Assembly (NCBI RefSeq): GCF_010729485.1 | Contig: NZ_AP022609.1 | Span: forward strand, 2,232,001-2,296,000 | Length of the DNA: 64,000 nucleotides | Direction of reading: 5' to 3' | Source of the DNA: Mycolicibacter hiberniae | GTDB lineage: Bacteria; Actinomycetota; Actinomycetes; Mycobacteriales; Mycobacteriaceae | Shown: positions 56,079-64,000 of the stretch, piece by piece | Layout of the letters: each line of letters begins with the position of its first letter | Position numbering within the stretch: the stretch's first letter is position 1 | Translations under genes and position numbers: made by a program | The notes under the pieces: model-generated | Told to the model about the DNA's origin: nothing | The model's input: only the letters and a program-made list of their open reading frames with translations | Databases searched by the model: none

Positions 56079-56165
56079 GACTCGAAAGCCTAGTCGGCCC
56101 CTCGCGCCGACGGTAAAGGCAGCATCGCCTGCGGCAGCCCGGCAGGCACTGTGGGAAAGTTGCCC

Positions 56166-56831
56166 ATGCCTTCCTATCTGCTGCGCGTCGAACTCGACGA
56201 CCGCCCCGGCAGCCTGGGTTCGCTGGCCGTGGGTCTGGGCTCGGTGGGTGCTGACATCTTGTCGCTGGACGTCGTGGAACGCGGCAGCGGCTCGGCGATC
56301 GACGACTTGGTGGTCGAGCTGCCGCAGGGTTCGATGCCCGACGTGCTGATCACCGCCGCCGAGCGGCTACCCGGGGTGCGGGTGCACAGCGTCCGTCCGC
56401 ACACCGGACTGCTGGACGCGCACCGCGAACTCGAACTCATCGATCACGTCGCAGCAGCCGGGGACCGCAGCGCCAAGTTGCAGAAGCTGGCCGACGAAGC
56501 GCCGCGGGTGCTTCGGGTGAGCTGGTGCACCGTGCTGCGCAGCGAGGGGTCCGATGGGGCGTTCCGCCGGCTCGCGGGCAGCCGTGGAACCCCGGAGACC
56601 GAGGTCGGGACGGTGCCGTGGTTGCCGATCGAGCGGGCCACCGCGTTGGACAACACCGCCGCCTGGGTGCCCGCGGTGTGGCGGGAGATGGACGTCGCGT
56701 TGGCGGCGGCACCGCTGGGCAGCCCGGACACCGCGGTTGTCCTGGGCCGGACCGGGGGTCCGGCGTTCCTGCCCGCCGAGGTGGTCCGGCTGGGTTATCT
56801 GGCCGGCATCGTGGCGACCCTGCTGCGTTGA
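56166..56831 (+). CDS. ACT-domain protein (Rv3013-like)
   Basis: The 221-residue protein begins [31 protein letters not shown], an ACT domain likely to bind an amino acid. A second half without recognisable enzyme motif ends in a segment ([19 protein letters not shown]). The start at 56166 puts the ACT domain directly at the N-terminus. In M. tuberculosis Rv3013 sits at the same place next to gatC. Function unknown; an amino-acid sensing role is inferred from ACT alone. Confidence 0.8.
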
Positions 56832-56883: not shown

Positions 56884-57480
56884 TCAATCGTTGGTCTCCG
56901 GCGCGGCCGTCAGCGCTTTGCGCAAGACGAGCCTGGTCTGCGCAATGGCGTCGGCAGGCGCGACACCGCCGCGGGCGATCAAGGTGGCAGCGGCAAGAAT
57001 CTGGCTGCCGAAGGTGGTTGCCGCGACGATCGGCGATATCCGCCGGTCGACTTCGCCGGCCCGCTGCGCCCGGTGCACCGCCGCGGCGAGCACCTCCATC
57101 GACTGCGCCTCGGCGACCAACCGGCTGGGATCGGCGATCGGAGCCAAAATCAGCACCCGGTAGCGACTGGCGACTTCGACGGCGGGACCGACCAGTTCTA
57201 TGAGGCTCGGCAACACCGGACCGGACTTCGGCAGTGATAGGTAGAGCTCGCGCATATTCGCCACCGCTGCCGCGTGAATGGCGACCACCAGTTGCTCCCG
57301 GTTCGGGAAGTGCCGGTAGAGGGTGCCTCGGTTGAGCGCCGCGGCGTCGGCGATCTCCTGCATCGAGGCGTTCGGGTCTCCTGCGAGGACGTCGGTTGCC
57401 GCCTCCAGGATTCGTTGCCGGTTCTCGATCACGTCGGATCGCATCCGGCTCGTGTCGACCGACGAAGTCCCACGCGCCAT
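56884..57480 (-). CDS. TetR-family regulator of the BVMO operon
   Basis: The 198-residue protein from ATG 57480 has a TetR helix-turn-helix (RQRILEAATDVLAGDPNASMQEIADAAALNRGTLYRHFPNRE in parts, residues 15-60) and a C-terminal helical ligand domain. It is divergent from the monooxygenase gene across 126 bases that contain a good palindrome at 57525. It therefore probably represses the monooxygenase-dehydrogenase pair until a ligand, perhaps the ketone substrate, is present. A longer upstream frame exists but would cover the operator region. Confidence 0.85.
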   Translation of the reverse strand: MARGTSSVDTSRMRSDVIENRQRILEAATDVLAGDPNASMQEIADAAALNRGTLYRHFPNREQLVVAIHAAAVANMRELYLSLPKSGPVLPSLIELVGPAVEVASRYRVLILAPIADPSRLVAEAQSMEVLAAAVHRAQRAGEVDRRISPIVAATTFGSQILAAATLIARGGVAPADAIAQTRLVLRKALTAAPETND

Positions 57481-57524
57481 GGTTGACAGCGTAATCGACG
57501 CGTGCCAGACTTCGAGCACCTAAA

Positions 57525-57541
57525 TGCGACATACTGTTGCA
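57525..57541. promoter_or_regulatory. Palindromic operator between TetR and BVMO genes
   Basis: TGCGACATACTGTTGCA has arms TGCGACA and TGTTGCA with one mismatch around a 3-base centre, the size and shape of TetR-family operators. It lies mid-way between the divergent starts. Confidence 0.55.
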
Positions 57542-57606
57542 CTTCAGCGTTCCCGGGGCCGCACGTCGGTCGTGCGTCATTCCCGAGCCGACACAGCGAG
57601 GAACTC

Positions 57607-59223
57607 ATGGCCACAAGCGATCACGCCTTGTCAGCGCCGGGCAACGAGGCCGACGGCGCCGGGCCGGAGCAGCGCGGGATCCCCGACCACGAGATCGTGA
57701 TCGTCGGCGCGGGCTTCTCGGGAATCGGCTCGGCGATCAAGCTCGTCGAGGCGGGGTTCAACGATTTCGTGATCCTCGACGATGGGGATGGCGTGGGCGG
57801 CACCTGGCATTGGAACCGCTACCCCGGGGTGGCGGTCGACATCCCGTCGTACAGCTATCAGTTCTCATTCGAGAAGCGGGCCACCTGGTCGCGCACCTAC
57901 GCCAACGGTGCGGAACTGGCGGACTACGCCAGTCACTGCGTGGACAAGTACGGCCTTCGCGGCCGGCTGCGGCTGAACACGAACGTGCAGTCGGCCCGGT
58001 TCGACGAAGCCCATGCGCTGTGGCGCCTGAGCACCCAACAGGGCGACATCAGCGCCCGCTTTGTCATCAACGCGTCCGGGGCGCTGACAACACCCAAGAT
58101 GCCCGACATCGAGGGCATCGAACTCTTCGCCGGATCGGTCATGCACAGCGCCCGCTGGGATGACTCGGTCGACTTCTCCGACGCCCGGGTCGGGATCATC
58201 GGAACGGGGGCCTCCGCCGTCCAAATCATTCCGGCCATTGCCCCGCGAACCCGGCACCTGACGGTATTCCAGCGCACCCCGATCTGGTGCATGCCGAAAC
58301 TCGACCTCAAGATTCCCGGTGCCGTGCAGACCCTGATCGGCAGAATTCCCGCCCTGGAACTTGCGCTACGGGTCGCCAGTGAGGCGTTTGTCGAGATCAC
58401 CTTCCCCATCGTGGCCCACTATCACAAGTTTTTCCCGGTCGGAAAGCTCGCGCAGCAGCAGGCGAAGCTCTATCTGTACAGCCAGGTGAAGGATCCCGCG
58501 CTGCGCGAAAAGCTGCTGCCCACCTACACGCTGGGCTGCAAACGCCCGAGTTTCCACAACAGCTACTACGCGGCCTACAACAGAGCGAACGTGCACCTGG
58601 AGACCAACGCCATCTCCCGCATCGATGAGCGCGGTGTCGTCACGGCCGACGGTGCGACCCACGAACTGGATGTCCTCATCCTGGCCACCGGTTTCAAAAT
58701 CGCGGACCCCGATGCGAATCCGACCTACGAGCTGATCGGCAACTCCGGACAACGGTTGGCCGACTGGTGGGATGCGAACAGGCTGCAGGCCTACGAGGGA
58801 GTCAGCGTTCCCGGTTTCCCCAACCACTTCTCCGTATACGGGCCCTACGGCTATAACGGCTCCTCGTATTTCAACCTCATCGAAACGCAGGCCGGGCATA
58901 TCGTGCGCTGCTTGAACCACGCGCGAGCCACCGCCAGCACGCTCGTCGAGATCAAACCCGAGGCCAATTCCCGCTTTTTCGAAGCCATGCTGTCTCGCCG
59001 TTACCGTCAGATCTTTTGGCAGAAGGGCTGCTGCTCCTCGAACAGCTACTACTTCGACAAGCACGGCGATGTCCCCATCCGGCCCACCACGACGTGGAAT
59101 ACCGCCCGCCGCGCCAAGCGTTTCCCGCTGGACGACTACCGGTTCACCACCGCTCACGCGTCCGGCAATGACCGGGCGGCCAGCCCGGACACCGCCGCTG
59201 CCGGGTCCGCCCGGCAAGGCTGA
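57607..59223 (+). CDS. Baeyer-Villiger-type flavin monooxygenase
   Basis: The 538-residue protein inserts an oxygen atom into ketones or oxidises related carbonyls with FAD and NADPH. It has the first Rossmann motif IVGAGFSGIGSAIKLVEAG (about residue 35-53), GVGGTWHWNRYPGVAVDIPSY in part, the BVMO fingerprint FAGSVMHSARWDD, and a second nucleotide motif IGTGASAVQIIPAI. These match type I BVMOs, including MymA-like mycobacterial enzymes, rather than FMO. ATG 57607 follows GAGGAACTC. The dehydrogenase gene follows by 50 bases. Substrate cannot be read from sequence. Confidence 0.85.
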   Translation: MATSDHALSAPGNEADGAGPEQRGIPDHEIVIVGAGFSGIGSAIKLVEAGFNDFVILDDGDGVGGTWHWNRYPGVAVDIPSYSYQFSFEKRATWSRTYANGAELADYASHCVDKYGLRGRLRLNTNVQSARFDEAHALWRLSTQQGDISARFVINASGALTTPKMPDIEGIELFAGSVMHSARWDDSVDFSDARVGIIGTGASAVQIIPAIAPRTRHLTVFQRTPIWCMPKLDLKIPGAVQTLIGRIPALELALRVASEAFVEITFPIVAHYHKFFPVGKLAQQQAKLYLYSQVKDPALREKLLPTYTLGCKRPSFHNSYYAAYNRANVHLETNAISRIDERGVVTADGATHELDVLILATGFKIADPDANPTYELIGNSGQRLADWWDANRLQAYEGVSVPGFPNHFSVYGPYGYNGSSYFNLIETQAGHIVRCLNHARATASTLVEIKPEANSRFFEAMLSRRYRQIFWQKGCCSSNSYYFDKHGDVPIRPTTTWNTARRAKRFPLDDYRFTTAHASGNDRAASPDTAAAGSARQG

Positions 59224-59273: not shown

Positions 59274-60419
59274 GTGAGAGCAGTTGTTTGCCACGACGGC
59301 ACTTTGTCGGTTTCCGAACTTCCCACACCGCGTCCAGGCCGCGGTCAAGTCCGCCTGAAGGTGCTTCGGTGCGGCATCTGCGGTTCTGACCTGCACGCAC
59401 GCCACCACAGCGACGATCTGGCCGACGTGGCCGCCGACATGGGATACCTGGAGGCGATGCGATCGACCGACTGCACCGTGTTCGGGCACGAGTTCTGCGG
59501 CGAGATCCTCGAATACGGTCCACGGTGCAAGAAGCGGGCTCCGATCGGAAGCCGCGTCGTGGCTTTTCCGTTGCGGCGCGCGGGCGAGGGCATACATCCG
59601 ATCGGGCTTTCGGCGTCTGCGCCGGGCGGCTACGCCGAGGAACTGCTCGTCGAAGAATCCTTGATGGTGCCCGTCCCCGACGAACTCAGCACCGACATCG
59701 CCGCGCTGACCGAGCCCATGGCGGTCGGACTGCACACCGTGCGGCGGTCAAAGATCCGGCGAGGCCAGATCGCCGTCGTCATCGGCGCGGGCCCCATCGG
59801 GCTCGCGGTCGTGCTCATGCTCAAGGCGCGGGGTGTTCGCACGGTGATCGCCAGCGACTACAGCGCGGCACGACGCGCGTTGGCCAAGAAATGCGGGGCC
59901 GACATCGTCGTCGATCCGGCGACCGAATCTCCCATCGACTACGTCGAGAAACGGCCCGGGTACTTCACCAGCTCAGTAGCCGCGATGCGCCTGCTGCTAC
60001 GCGCCACCGAAGCGGCGAACACCCTGCCGATCCCGCTGTGGCAGACCTGGAGGGCGCTCGAATCTGTGGGGGTTGGCCCCAAAGCCCCGGTGATCTTCGA
60101 ATGCGTCGGCGTCCCTGGAGTCCTGAATTCGGTGATCACCTCCGCGCCGATCATGTCGCGCATCATCGTCGCCGGGGTGTGCATGGGCGAGGACCGGCTG
60201 CGGCTCGCGATGGCGATCAACAAAGAACTCGACATCCGTTTCGTCCTGGGATACACCCCGATTGAGTTCCGCCAGACCGTCAGAATGCTCGCCAAGAAGA
60301 AGATAGACCCGACACCGCTGATCACCGCCACCGTCTCACTGGCCGGGGTCGACGGGGCGTTCGAGGCGCTGGCCAGTCCCGACGACCACGCGAAGATTCT
60401 CATCGACCCTACTGTGTAG
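59274..60419 (+). CDS. Zinc-binding alcohol dehydrogenase, MDR family
   Basis: The 381-residue medium-chain dehydrogenase has the catalytic zinc ligands in RCGICGSDLHARH and FGHEFCGEILEYG. The cofactor motif is IGAGPIGLAVVLMLKARG, with FECVGVPGVLNSVI after it. The structural zinc cluster of four closely spaced cysteines is not evident, which is common for the sorbitol/threonine-dehydrogenase-like branch. It starts GTG 59274 in the transcript of the BVMO, so it probably supplies or removes a ketone for it. An insertion around residues 215-240 is unusual for length. Confidence 0.85.
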   Translation: MRAVVCHDGTLSVSELPTPRPGRGQVRLKVLRCGICGSDLHARHHSDDLADVAADMGYLEAMRSTDCTVFGHEFCGEILEYGPRCKKRAPIGSRVVAFPLRRAGEGIHPIGLSASAPGGYAEELLVEESLMVPVPDELSTDIAALTEPMAVGLHTVRRSKIRRGQIAVVIGAGPIGLAVVLMLKARGVRTVIASDYSAARRALAKKCGADIVVDPATESPIDYVEKRPGYFTSSVAAMRLLLRATEAANTLPIPLWQTWRALESVGVGPKAPVIFECVGVPGVLNSVITSAPIMSRIIVAGVCMGEDRLRLAMAINKELDIRFVLGYTPIEFRQTVRMLAKKKIDPTPLITATVSLAGVDGAFEALASPDDHAKILIDPTV

Positions 60420-60451: not shown

Positions 60452-62803
60452 TTATGCCCCGACTCGGGTGACCGTGACGTTGATGGTGGTGGCTCCGGGG
60501 TCGGAGGCGATGACCAGCACGGTGGCGTTGGGCGCCGAGATCACGTGGCCGCCGGTGACACTCACGTCGTAGCCGTTCGGGTAGATGACGGCCGGCACAG
60601 CGATGTTGGTCTGCGCACCGGCGGCGAAGACGCCCTGGCCGTCGGCCATCTGCGTGGAGTAGCTGAGCTGGAACGTGCCGTTGTCGAACGACCAGTTGTT
60701 CGGAATACCCGCGACCGCCTGCGGGTAGGGCTCGGCGAGCACCTCCAGCTTCGCGGCGTCGATATTGTCGCCGGTCGGCGGCAGGCTGGTGTTGTACACC
60801 AACGACGCCGCACGGGCTGGGACGGGGATGTCCATATTGTTGTTCTGGCCGGTGTAGGTCCACGTCGCCCAGCCGTACCGGTGCCCGACGGCGGCATCTG
60901 TAAATGCGGTGTGTACGCCAGGAATGTTGCTGTTGCCGAACCCACCGATGTGGGCCGGGATGTCGTGCTCGTCGGCGTACCGCGCGGCGGTGGCGAGTGC
61001 CATATCGGCGAAGACGTCGCAGAACAGGTTGATACCCAACAGGTCTGAAGTCGGGCAGAAGTTCTGGAACGAGTAGATGGCCTTGTCGTCGTCGATCGCG
61101 CCCAGCTGGGTGGGGACGCCCAGATTGAACAGCACGTTGGGCTGCACGAACACCGGGGTGTCCGGATCCACCGAGCGGATCGCCGCGATCGCTTGGTTGT
61201 AGAACGGAGTCAGTTGCTGCGAGTCGAAGTAGGGGTTGCCCAACAGAGTCGAGAGCCAGTGCGATCCTGAGTGCGGTTCGGCGATCACCCCGAAGGCGGC
61301 CACGCCCGGGTTGTCTTTGAAGTAGTGCGCCACCACCTGCAGCATCTGCGCGTAGTGATTCTCCAGCCCGATACCGTCCGGCGCCTTGGCGTTGTTCCAG
61401 AACGCATCCCAGGCGTGGTTCCCAGCGGGGTTGACGAAGTAGTTCCAGGGGAAGCCGAAGTCGGGGTTGGGCAGCCCGCCGGTCTGCACCGCCCACTCCG
61501 GCGCCCCCACCCCGCCGAACGCGGTGCCGTAGAGGTCCTGGTGCATGTAGATGTTGCTGGTGACGCCGTGATTGGCCAGCGTCTGCACGGTCTGGGCAAC
61601 CGAGGCCAGATAGTCATAGTCGTAGACCCCGGGCTGCGGCTCGACCGCAGACCAGATCAGGCCCAGCTGAATATTGTTGAAGCCGTTGGTGGCCAGGAAC
61701 GCCGCATCGTCGTCGCCGAATCCGTCGGCTGACAACTCGTAGGGCGCCACCTTGTTCACGTGGTCGAAGCCGTGCAGGATCACCACGCGACCGTCACTGT
61801 CGATCAGCCAGGAACCGGCCGTCGAGTACCCACCGGTCCCGCCCCCGCTCAGCGCAACACCGGTACCGAACTGGCCGACGTCACCATGGGATCCGAACAT
61901 GAACAGGCTGCCGTCGCCGCCGGTACCGCCCAGTGCAGGCAACCGGGTGGCAACCCCACCCACACCACTGTTACCGGCATCGCCACCGTCACCACCGCTG
62001 CCGAACAGGCCGATAGCACTACCGCCGTCACCACCGTGCCCGCCGTCGACGCCATCACCACCGGCACCGCCGGCACCACCGATGCCGAACACCCAGCCAC
62101 CGGCACCACCGGAGCCACCGATCCCGCCGATCTCTCCATCACCACCGGCACCACCGGCACCACCGATGCCCAGCAACCAACCACCGGCGCCACCAGCGCC
62201 TCCGGCGGCGCCCTCGCCCCCGGCCCCGCCGGCACCACCGTTGCCGAACCACCCCGCCGCGCCACCGGCGCCACCGGCCACACTGTCGACAGTGCTGGAA
62301 TAACCGGCACCACCATCACCGAACAACCACCCACCGGCACCACCATCAGGATTCTCCGCAGTGCCGTCCGCGCCGTCGCCAATCGCATACGAACCCAACA
62401 GCTGGTTGACCCAACCGCCGACCTGAAGACCCAGATCGCTGTTGATGAAGTTGTCGACGCCGGTGTGGATCGGGGTGTAGAACCACTCATCGAACAACGC
62501 GGTCAAACCCACCGGCGACGCCAACGCCGCCAGCGGCTCGCCCACGCCGTCCAAATTGGCCCACGCGGCATCCCAATGCGCCGGGTCCAAAAACGTCTCC
62601 CACGCCGCCGAATCCAACAACGCACCCCAGTCGACGCCGCTGGTCGCCGCGTCCACAAACGGCGAGAACAACTCATCGAACACATCATCAAGATCCGCCC
62701 GCGCCGGCACCGCGGGAAGCAGCACCGCAATACCCACTCCGGTGCAGGCCGCGGCGGCGAGCCGCGCCTGGCCGTTGGTCCTCGTGCCGGGCCGCGCGCC
62801 CAT
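60452..62803 (-). CDS. Secreted PGRS/GH5 endoglycoceramidase-like protein
   Basis: The 783-residue protein starts at ATG 62803 after AGGAGG and has a Sec signal peptide cut near ARA-D (residue 37). Residues about 38-150 are helical, 153-328 a PGRS-type Gly/Ala-rich region, and about 331-690 a GH5 domain resembling endoglycoceramidases (FNNIQLGLIWSAVEPQPGVYD, IYMHQDLYGTAFGGVGAPEW). A beta-rich C-terminus ends INVTVTRVGA. The acid/base region reads IAEPHSGS with Glu 509 kept but the usual Asn changed to Ala. The nucleophile motif GEFG reads GGFG, with Gly at 621. Enzyme activity is therefore doubtful. A tandem paralogue lies upstream on the same strand. Confidence 0.8.
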   Translation of the reverse strand: MGARPGTRTNGQARLAAAACTGVGIAVLLPAVPARADLDDVFDELFSPFVDAATSGVDWGALLDSAAWETFLDPAHWDAAWANLDGVGEPLAALASPVGLTALFDEWFYTPIHTGVDNFINSDLGLQVGGWVNQLLGSYAIGDGADGTAENPDGGAGGWLFGDGGAGYSSTVDSVAGGAGGAAGWFGNGGAGGAGGEGAAGGAGGAGGWLLGIGGAGGAGGDGEIGGIGGSGGAGGWVFGIGGAGGAGGDGVDGGHGGDGGSAIGLFGSGGDGGDAGNSGVGGVATRLPALGGTGGDGSLFMFGSHGDVGQFGTGVALSGGGTGGYSTAGSWLIDSDGRVVILHGFDHVNKVAPYELSADGFGDDDAAFLATNGFNNIQLGLIWSAVEPQPGVYDYDYLASVAQTVQTLANHGVTSNIYMHQDLYGTAFGGVGAPEWAVQTGGLPNPDFGFPWNYFVNPAGNHAWDAFWNNAKAPDGIGLENHYAQMLQVVAHYFKDNPGVAAFGVIAEPHSGSHWLSTLLGNPYFDSQQLTPFYNQAIAAIRSVDPDTPVFVQPNVLFNLGVPTQLGAIDDDKAIYSFQNFCPTSDLLGINLFCDVFADMALATAARYADEHDIPAHIGGFGNSNIPGVHTAFTDAAVGHRYGWATWTYTGQNNNMDIPVPARAASLVYNTSLPPTGDNIDAAKLEVLAEPYPQAVAGIPNNWSFDNGTFQLSYSTQMADGQGVFAAGAQTNIAVPAVIYPNGYDVSVTGGHVISAPNATVLVIASDPGATTINVTVTRVGA
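61820..62347 (-). repeat. PGRS-type Gly-Gly-Ala repeat region
   Basis: This segment encodes residues 153-328 of the protein above, built of GGAGGxG and GGWLFGDGG/GGWVFGIGG units after an IGDGADGT hinge like that following PE domains in PE_PGRS proteins. The protein has no PE domain. The nucleotide repeats are degenerate. Confidence 0.85.
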
Positions 62804-62845
62804 GAAACCTCCTGCGAAAACAGCGAATCGGGTCTGGCGCAGCGG

Positions 62846-64000
62846 TTATGCCCCGACCCGGGTGACCGTGACGTTGATGGTGGTGGCTCCGGGGTCGGAG
62901 GCGATGACCAGCACGGTGGCGTTGGGCGCCGAGACCACTTGGCCGCCGGTGACATTGACCTCATAGCCGTTCGGGTAGATGACCGGCGGCACCGAGATGT
63001 TGGTCTGCGCACCGGCGGCGAAGACGCCCTGACCGTCGGCCATCTGCGTGGAGTAGCTGAGCTGGAACGTGCCGTTGTCGAACGACCACGCGTTGGGAAT
63101 GCCCGACACCGCCTGCGGATACGGCTCGGCGAGCACCTCCAGCTTCGCGGCATCGACATTGTCGCCTGTCGGCGGCAGGTTGGTGTCATAGACCAGCGAC
63201 TCGGCCTCGCGAGACGTGGCGGTGGTGGTGATGTCGTTCATACCGGTGTAGACCCACGTCGCCCAGCCGTATTGGTGCCGGGCGGCCGCATCCACTACCG
63301 CGGTGTGGGCGCCGAGAACGTTGCTGGCCCCGAAGCCGCCGATGTGTGCCGGGATGTTGTGCGCGTCTGGGTAAGTCGCCGCGTTATCGATCGCGATATC
63401 GGCGAACAGGTTGCAGAAGAAGTCGACGCCGAACAGGTCGACCGACGGGCAGAAGTGCTGGAACGAGTAGATGACCTTCTCGTCGTTCACCGTGCCCAAT
63501 TGGGTCTGGACGCCCAAATTGAAGAGCACATTCGGCTGTACGAACACCGGTGTGTAAGGGTCGACCGACCGGATCGCCGCGACCGATTGGTTGTAGAAGG
63601 GGGTTAGCTGCTGAGAGTCGAAGTACGGGCTGCCCAACAGGCTGGAGAGCCATTGCGATCCGGAGTGCGGTTCGGCCACGATACCGAAGGCGGCCACGCC
63701 GGGGTTGTCCTTGAAGTAGTTGGCCACGACCTGCAGCATCTGCGCGTGGTGGGTCTCCAGTCCGACCCCGTCGGGCGCCTTGGCGTTGCCCCAGAACGCA
63801 TCCCATGCGTGGTTCTGCGCCGGGTTGACGAAGTAACTCCAGGGGAAGCCGATGTCGATGTTAGGCAGTCCGCCGGTCTGTACCGCCCACTCCGGCGCCC
63901 CTTCGCCCCCGAACGGGGTGCTGTAGAGGTCCTGGTGCATGTAGATGTTGCTGGAAATGCCGTGCGCGGACAGCGTCTGTACCGTCTGGGCGACCGAGGC
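62846..64000 (-). CDS. Second GH5 endoglycoceramidase-like protein, 5' part outside window
   Basis: The reading frame is open from the window edge to the stop at 62846 (385 codons shown), so the N-terminus is missing. It aligns along its whole visible length with the GH5 and C-terminal parts of the 60452-62803 protein. Matches include IYMHQDLYSTPFGGEGAPEW, GIVAEPHSGSQWLSSL and IPAHIGGFGASN. It shares the same two changes: Ala before the acid/base Glu, and Gly where the nucleophile Glu should be. Only 42 bases separate its stop from the next gene's start, so the two are probably co-transcribed. A signal peptide or PGRS region cannot be judged. Confidence 0.8.
   Translation of the reverse strand, partial: ASVAQTVQTLSAHGISSNIYMHQDLYSTPFGGEGAPEWAVQTGGLPNIDIGFPWSYFVNPAQNHAWDAFWGNAKAPDGVGLETHHAQMLQVVANYFKDNPGVAAFGIVAEPHSGSQWLSSLLGSPYFDSQQLTPFYNQSVAAIRSVDPYTPVFVQPNVLFNLGVQTQLGTVNDEKVIYSFQHFCPSVDLFGVDFFCNLFADIAIDNAATYPDAHNIPAHIGGFGASNVLGAHTAVVDAAARHQYGWATWVYTGMNDITTTATSREAESLVYDTNLPPTGDNVDAAKLEVLAEPYPQAVSGIPNAWSFDNGTFQLSYSTQMADGQGVFAAGAQTNISVPPVIYPNGYEVNVTGGQVVSAPNATVLVIASDPGATTINVTVTRVGA

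What the first reader, a model, noticed from the sequence alone, without database searches (positions are those of the whole stretch)
60452..64000. Tandem GH5 endoglycoceramidase-like proteins with apparently lost catalytic residues
Both paralogues keep fold landmarks of GH5 endoglycoceramidases (WSAVEPQPGVYD, MHQD-LY, GAPEWAV). However, the nucleophile motif GEFG reads GGFG in both, the NEP acid/base motif reads AEP with the Glu kept, and the HxY-type motif region reads SFQNF or SFQHF. Identical losses in two diverged copies suggest selection for a non-hydrolytic role (glycolipid or glycan binding, transferase) or a relocated nucleophile, not simple decay. The alignment to endoglycoceramidase II is from memory.
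Basis: partly seen in the sequence, partly recalled or inferred. Interest (0 to 1): 0.7.

Follow-up and report, generated by a model that had tools for sequence, protein, structure and literature searches.

The report
Endoglycoceramidase-like proteins lacking the catalytic nucleophile
Two neighbouring proteins of a mycobacterium have the shape of enzymes that cut sugars off lipids but lack the residue that does the cutting and most of its helpers; relatives in other species keep this altered form, so the proteins probably grip such molecules instead of cutting them.

Summary
Two tandem minus-strand genes (60452-62803; 62846 to 65272, past the window end) encode a secretion-type N-terminus, a PGRS stretch and an endoglycoceramidase-like GH5 barrel with its C-terminal domain. 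Alignment to solved endoglycoceramidases I and II puts Gly where the nucleophile Glu belongs. Of eight GH5 signature residues five are replaced (Arg to Gln, Asn to Ala, His to Gln, Tyr to Phe, Glu to Gly); the acid/base Glu, one His and the Trp stay. The same genome holds at least four intact paralogues. Among 255 related domains 22 lack the nucleophile (15 Gly, 7 Ser); all 22 also lack Asn, His and Tyr, and all 22 keep the acid/base Glu. The Gly type sits between ligA and an ACT-type gene in five genomes, open, with dN/dS well below 1. The loss came before the duplication, so the two copies are one event. Best reading: a pseudoglycosidase that binds glycolipid or glycan head groups, as laboratory Glu-to-Ser endoglycoceramidases do in crystals with gangliosides. 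Binding and activity are untested. A nucleophile-free reaction using the retained Glu is not excluded.

The parts
60452..62803 (-). copy 1: secretion-type N-terminus, PGRS stretch, nucleophile-less GH5 barrel and GH5 C-terminal domain, 783 aa
   Evidence: ORF; Pfam PGRS 3.4e-17, Cellulase PF00150 4.1e-12, Glyco_hydro_5_C 6.4e-14
62174..62383 (-). PGRS repeat domain of copy 1 (residues 141-210)
60851..61711 (-). GH5 (PF00150) match of copy 1 (residues 365-651)
   Evidence: AF2 model; PDB matches
60476..60730 (-). GH5 C-terminal domain of copy 1 (residues 692-776)
60941..60943 (-). copy 1 Gly297 in place of the nucleophile Glu (E of EFG in EGC I)
61280..61282 (-). copy 1 Ala184 in place of the NEP Asn
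61277..61279 (-). copy 1 Glu185, retained acid/base
61058..61066 (-). copy 1 Gln256-Asn257-Phe258 in place of His-x-Tyr
61667..61669 (-). copy 1 Gln55 in place of the GH5 Arg
62846..64000 (-). copy 2, part inside the window (stop at 62846; frame continues to an ATG at 65272, outside the window)
63335..63337 (-). copy 2 Gly297 in place of the nucleophile Glu
63671..63676 (-). copy 2 Ala184-Glu185 (Asn lost, acid/base kept)
63452..63460 (-). copy 2 Gln256-His257-Phe258 in place of His-x-Tyr
59274..60419 (+). neighbour: zinc-binding alcohol dehydrogenase, part of the same accessory block
   Evidence: synteny
57502..59223 (+). neighbour: flavin-dependent monooxygenase (FMO / Baeyer-Villiger type), part of the block
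56884..57519 (-). neighbour: TetR regulator, part of the block
56151..56831 (+). flanking gene (ACT-type protein; name recalled, not tested); lies directly beside ligA in genomes without the block

Best explanation
Both proteins are pseudoglycosidases: exported PGRS proteins whose endoglycoceramidase-type GH5 barrel can no longer form the covalent glycosyl-enzyme and is kept as a binding site for the glucosyl or lactosyl end of glycolipids or related beta-glycans. Shown: the fold (prediction and sequence), the loss of the nucleophile and of four further signature residues (Arg, Asn, His, Tyr), the retention of Lys27, His97, Asp99, Glu185 and Trp324, a loss older than the tandem duplication, and purifying selection across species. 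Inferred: export (N-terminus read by eye), that the retained residues hold a sugar, and that binding is the selected function. The ligand (host, prey or own glycolipid) is not known.
Against: No binding datum. The pocket-side positions of the Gly lineage are only modestly more conserved than the rest of the barrel (variability ratio 0.84; intact groups 0.54-0.90; Ser lineage 0.78). Retention of the acid/base Glu in every member is more than a plain binding site would need. Asn184 and the Trp at 187, possible sugar contacts, are replaced.
Confidence: 0.5

Rival explanations
1. Regulatory or helper pseudoenzymes: the copies act with the intact PGRS-GH5 paralogues, as substrate presenters, competitors or partners.
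For: All five genomes with the Gly type have further matches of this GH5 family; the window genome has four with the eight residues intact. Precedent: inactive GH28 proteins of Phytophaga beetles take part in the pectin-digesting pathway of the active ones (PMC6549527, abstract).
Against: The intact genes lie at other places in the genome and I know of no complex in this family.
Confidence: 0.2
2. Still an enzyme, by a route that needs no enzyme nucleophile: the retained Glu185 works as acid or base and either water, the 2-acetamido group of the substrate, or an activated donor takes the place of the nucleophile.
For: Glu185 unchanged in 22 of 22 while Asn184, His256 and Tyr258 are lost in 22 of 22. 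The natural replacements, Gly and Ser, are small, as in the EGC II D314Y/E351S mutant used to couple glycosyl fluorides to sphingosines (PMC10796935, passages). Small residues at 184 and 297 could make room for a 2-acetamido group (inference). H256 to Asp in 11 of 22 could give another carboxylate.
Against: The window copies have Gln at 256; five of eight signature residues are gone, whereas the engineered enzyme named has two changes; no new carboxylate is shared by all 22.
Confidence: 0.15
3. The GH5 barrel is only a scaffold for a surface PGRS protein, changing with little functional demand or diversified for antigenic variation.
For: The block is more divergent between the window genome and M. 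engbaekii (dS 0.34 and 0.38 for the copies, 0.465 for the neighbouring dehydrogenase) than four intact paralogues (0.03-0.09) or the ACT-type gene (0.055), which points to exchange by recombination. The pocket is at the relaxed end of the conservation range.
Against: dN/dS 0.12-0.27; 26 derived positions are identical in 9 of 9 close Gly-type copies and rare in intact relatives.
Confidence: 0.15

Closest known systems
Endoglycoceramidase I of Rhodococcus equi (PDB 5ccu, 5j14, 5j7z)
   Different: R97Q, D137Y, N221A, W224H, H299Q, Y301F, E347G (chain index, mapped); PGRS region in front
Endoglycoceramidase II of Rhodococcus sp. and its E351S form (PDB 2osx)
   Different: Natural Gly, not engineered Ser, and four further signature residues lost
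Intact PGRS-GH5 paralogues of the same genome (G000:C1 near 388, 390, 3119 and 4308 kb)
   Same: Same domain order, 51-55% identity in the GH5 part
   Different: All eight signature residues present
Pseudoglycosidases such as YKL-39 (GH18), klotho (GH1), and inactive GH28 proteins of beetles
   Same: Glycoside hydrolase fold, catalysis lost, kept by evolution
   Different: Other GH families and hosts; none of these is an endoglycoceramidase-type GH5 or tied to PGRS

Membership tests
GH5 endoglycoceramidase-type fold | GH5 barrel with GH5 C-terminal domain and EGC-like structure | tested here: met
Catalytically competent GH5 (clan GH-A, retaining) | nucleophile Glu on strand 7 | tested here: not met
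   Gly in both copies
Catalytically competent GH5 (clan GH-A, retaining) | acid/base Glu on strand 4 | tested here: met
   Glu185
Catalytically competent GH5 (clan GH-A, retaining) | Arg, Asn, His and Tyr of the GH5 signature (the set of eight is recalled; its invariance was counted here) | tested here: not met
   Gln, Ala, Gln, Phe; in the 233 nucleophile-bearing relatives Arg 231, Asn 233, His 231, Tyr 231
Catalytically competent GH5 (clan GH-A, retaining) | His of HQD and Trp on strand 8 | tested here: met
NCBIfam NF051847 endoglycoceramidase I (equivalog) | score at or above the curated cut-off of 700 bits | tested here: not met
   218.3 bits (copy 1) and 142.9 bits (partial copy 2); the intact paralogues were not scored against it, so this does not set the copies apart from them
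Endoglycoceramidase (enzyme) | release of the glycan from glycosylceramides | not testable with these tools
   needs the purified protein
Pseudoglycosidase | glycosidase ancestry with catalytic residues lost and gene retained | tested here: met
Pseudoglycosidase lectin | glycan binding | not testable with these tools
   needs binding assays
PE_PGRS protein | N-terminal PE domain in front of PGRS | tested here: not met
   PGRS found, no PE family in the Pfam lists at E up to 1 (copy 1) or E up to 0.001 (copy 2)
Glycosynthase-like enzyme | small residue at the nucleophile position with the rest of the active site intact | tested here: not met
   small residue yes, but four further signature residues changed

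The most novel reading that the evidence does not exclude
A natural family of endoglycoceramidase-type GH5 proteins that still does chemistry without an enzyme nucleophile: the conserved acid/base Glu acts with a substrate 2-acetamido group, with water, or with an activated glycosyl donor in a pocket opened by Glu to Gly/Ser and Asn to Ala/Thr, making these natural counterparts of engineered glycosynthases or a substrate-assisted branch inside clan GH-A.
Probability: 0.12. Interest if true: 0.85.

Novelty: new variant of a known kind. Interest (0 to 1): 0.5.

Why it matters
Some public records of these proteins bear the name 'Endoglycoceramidase' (UniRef names of P0002 and P0003), a function that the sequence cannot support by the known mechanism. 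A lineage that drops the nucleophile and its neighbours as a set and keeps the acid/base Glu in 22 of 22 members makes a clean case for asking whether a GH5 pocket was turned into a lectin or into an enzyme of another mechanism, and what PGRS proteins of mycobacteria bind. The intact paralogues in the same genome are ready-made controls.

Tried and rejected
Simple decay: rejected by open frames, low dN/dS and presence in several species. A misaligned nucleophile: rejected; no Glu or Asp close to G297, and a profile and a single-sequence alignment to solved structures agree. Independent loss in the two copies: rejected by the trees. One or two origins of the nucleophile loss (Gly and Ser types): unresolved. 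The quick tree of 85 rows and the careful tree of 57 rows both put them apart, but a single clade is not rejected (AU p 0.874 and 0.183), and in the quick case the free search had missed a better tree. The Ser type as one clade gave p 0.857 in the quick tree and p 0.034 in the careful one.

A metal site from the new His24, His187 and His294 of the Gly type was considered; no coordinates of the model could be read, the sister protein L101 lacks all three, and the idea was dropped. Ser-type proteins were sought in 396 genomes of the genus: the best identity was 66%, which is the Gly-type sister of M. heraklionensis; so the Ser type is seen here only in proteins without an isolate name (metagenome, MAG or unnamed sources). 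The loci were not added to the residue count.

Literature: ten searches. 'PGRS' with 'endoglycoceramidase' gave 0 papers. No listed title or abstract start that I saw describes a nucleophile-less endoglycoceramidase; the lists were capped and the held library misses most subscription papers. PMC4758615 (passages) describes other glycosidase domains in PE and PPE proteins; the term GH5 does not occur in it. The primary EGC II and EGC I structure papers were not held.

The row pGH5_c2 was computed out of frame and is not used; copy 2 values come. The script stopped with an error at the last position (459), after printing the table used here.

Full report
What is there. Two minus-strand genes, 42 bases apart, end the window. 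Copy 1 (60452-62803, 783 aa) is complete; copy 2 starts outside (ATG at window coordinate 65272). Each has a basic-hydrophobic N-terminus ending in an A-x-A type site (read by eye; no predictor was run), a PGRS stretch (PF21526), a GH5 domain (PF00150) and the GH5 C-terminal domain PF18564. No PE domain was listed. The window lies at 2232001-2296000 of a single 4.397 Mb contig. The nearest named relatives are Mycolicibacter, M. engbaekii first (four intact paralogues are 97-100% identical to their M. engbaekii counterparts).

In-genome controls. The same genome has at least four more PGRS-GH5 genes (L010, L011 and two in L012) at 51-55% identity in the GH5 part, each with the eight signature residues intact.

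Survey. From the loci and the proteins of three database searches (each lists the best 120 of 892, 865 and 1112 matches), 260 distinct GH5 domains were cut out; 255 of at least 400 residues were counted (5 shorter ones dropped). 220 of 255 have all eight signature residues. 22 lack the nucleophile: 15 Gly, 7 Ser. In these 22, Asn184 is Ala 14, Thr 7, Ser 1; His256 is Asp 11, Gln 10, Ala 1; Tyr258 is Phe 22; Arg55 is lost in 21 (P0016 keeps it). Glu185, Lys27 and Asp99 are kept in 22, His97 and Trp324 in 21. The 233 with the nucleophile have Asn 233, Arg 231, His256 231, Tyr 231. The set is biased to relatives of the queries and many rows are close kin, so these are descriptive counts. In 297 genomes of the genus, 71 have a match at E up to 1e-30; the eight matches of 60% identity or more lie in five genomes, and all eight were read (one through the named record of the same contig) and lack the nucleophile. 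Not every weaker match was read.

History. In the trees the active-site columns were left out. The Gly type is one clade (support 100/98) with the M. heraklionensis protein L101 as sister (Gly at the nucleophile, other replacements elsewhere). Copy 1 groups with its M. engbaekii counterpart (100/100), so the loss is older than the duplication, and the duplication older than the split of these two loci. Gly and Ser types may be one or two events.

Selection. dN/dS (counting method): copy 1 against copy 2 0.27; copy 1 against M. engbaekii copy 1 0.16; copy 2 against M. engbaekii copy 2 0.12; the two M. engbaekii copies against each other 0.31; window copies against UM_WGJ, nonchromogenicus, longobardus and heraklionensis 0.125-0.27; against the sister L101 0.34-0.36. 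Intact paralogues against their nearest relatives gave 0.03-0.29. Codons at 185, 296 and 297 vary synonymously while the residue stays (10 genomic domains). Positions at the pocket side vary a little less than the rest of the barrel (0.112 against 0.134; ratio 0.84; intact groups 0.54-0.90; Ser lineage 0.78; positions chosen by me from the predicted strands), so the pocket is not freely drifting but is less protected than in most intact groups.

Place in the genome. Fourteen genomes, picked by me from those with GH5 matches, were searched for ligA and the ACT-type gene. In 9 of 14 the two matches are 12-73 bases apart; in the other five the nucleophile-less gene lies between them, with a TetR gene, and in four also with a flavin monooxygenase and a zinc dehydrogenase. 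Between the window genome and M. engbaekii the inserted stretch is more divergent than most flanks (dS: copies 0.34 and 0.38, dehydrogenase 0.465, TetR 0.384, monooxygenase 0.164; against ACT-type gene 0.055, pfkA 0.077, gatA 0.144, ligA 0.257, four intact paralogues 0.03-0.09): most simply an accessory block exchanged by recombination, whose reach includes part of ligA.

Mechanism. What has gone is the nucleophile and the residues that in GH5 enzymes hold it and the 2-hydroxyl (roles recalled); what stays is the acid/base Glu and residues equivalent, by motif order, to glucose contacts named for Sgl1 in PMC8497620 (passage). The ganglioside complexes carry Ser at the nucleophile in the printed sequences (5j14, 2osx). 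I therefore favour binding without cutting (0.5), with a helper role to the paralogues (0.2), a nucleophile-free reaction (0.15) and a scaffold role (0.15) as rivals. The total retention of Glu185 is the fact that fits binding least and keeps the novel case alive.

Novelty. Pseudoglycosidases are a known kind (PMC7828330, passages; PMC6549527, abstract). An endoglycoceramidase-type GH5 lineage of this sort, tied to PGRS, did not appear in the searches listed under Tried and rejected.

Noticed in passing
window 56500-65500 (and beyond): Accessory block between ligA and the ACT-type gene, absent in 9 of 14 related genomes examined, with synonymous divergence to M. engbaekii several times that of the ACT-type gene and pfkA; the dehydrogenase (59274-60419) is closer in dS to M. 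nonchromogenicus (0.166) than to M. engbaekii (0.465), pointing to mosaic exchange.
   Followed up: partly
L057 5140-7365, L058 5008-7365, P0013, P0045, P0051, P0056: Another altered GH5 group of this family: HQD reads TQG and the strand-8 Trp is Phe, while both catalytic Glu and the Asn are kept; possibly changed specificity.
   Followed up: no
P0014, P0016, P0023, P0026, P0035, P0036, P0038: Ser-type nucleophile-less proteins (LTSFG) with Thr or Ser for Asn and Asp for His, from sources without an isolate name; the Ser is the same change as in the laboratory EGC II E351S.
   Followed up: partly
G045, G073, G171, G221, G239, G096: In some genomes of the genus the match to this GH5 family comes in pieces or has a stop inside, unlike the open nucleophile-less genes; whether these are broken genes or assembly errors was not checked.
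   Followed up: no
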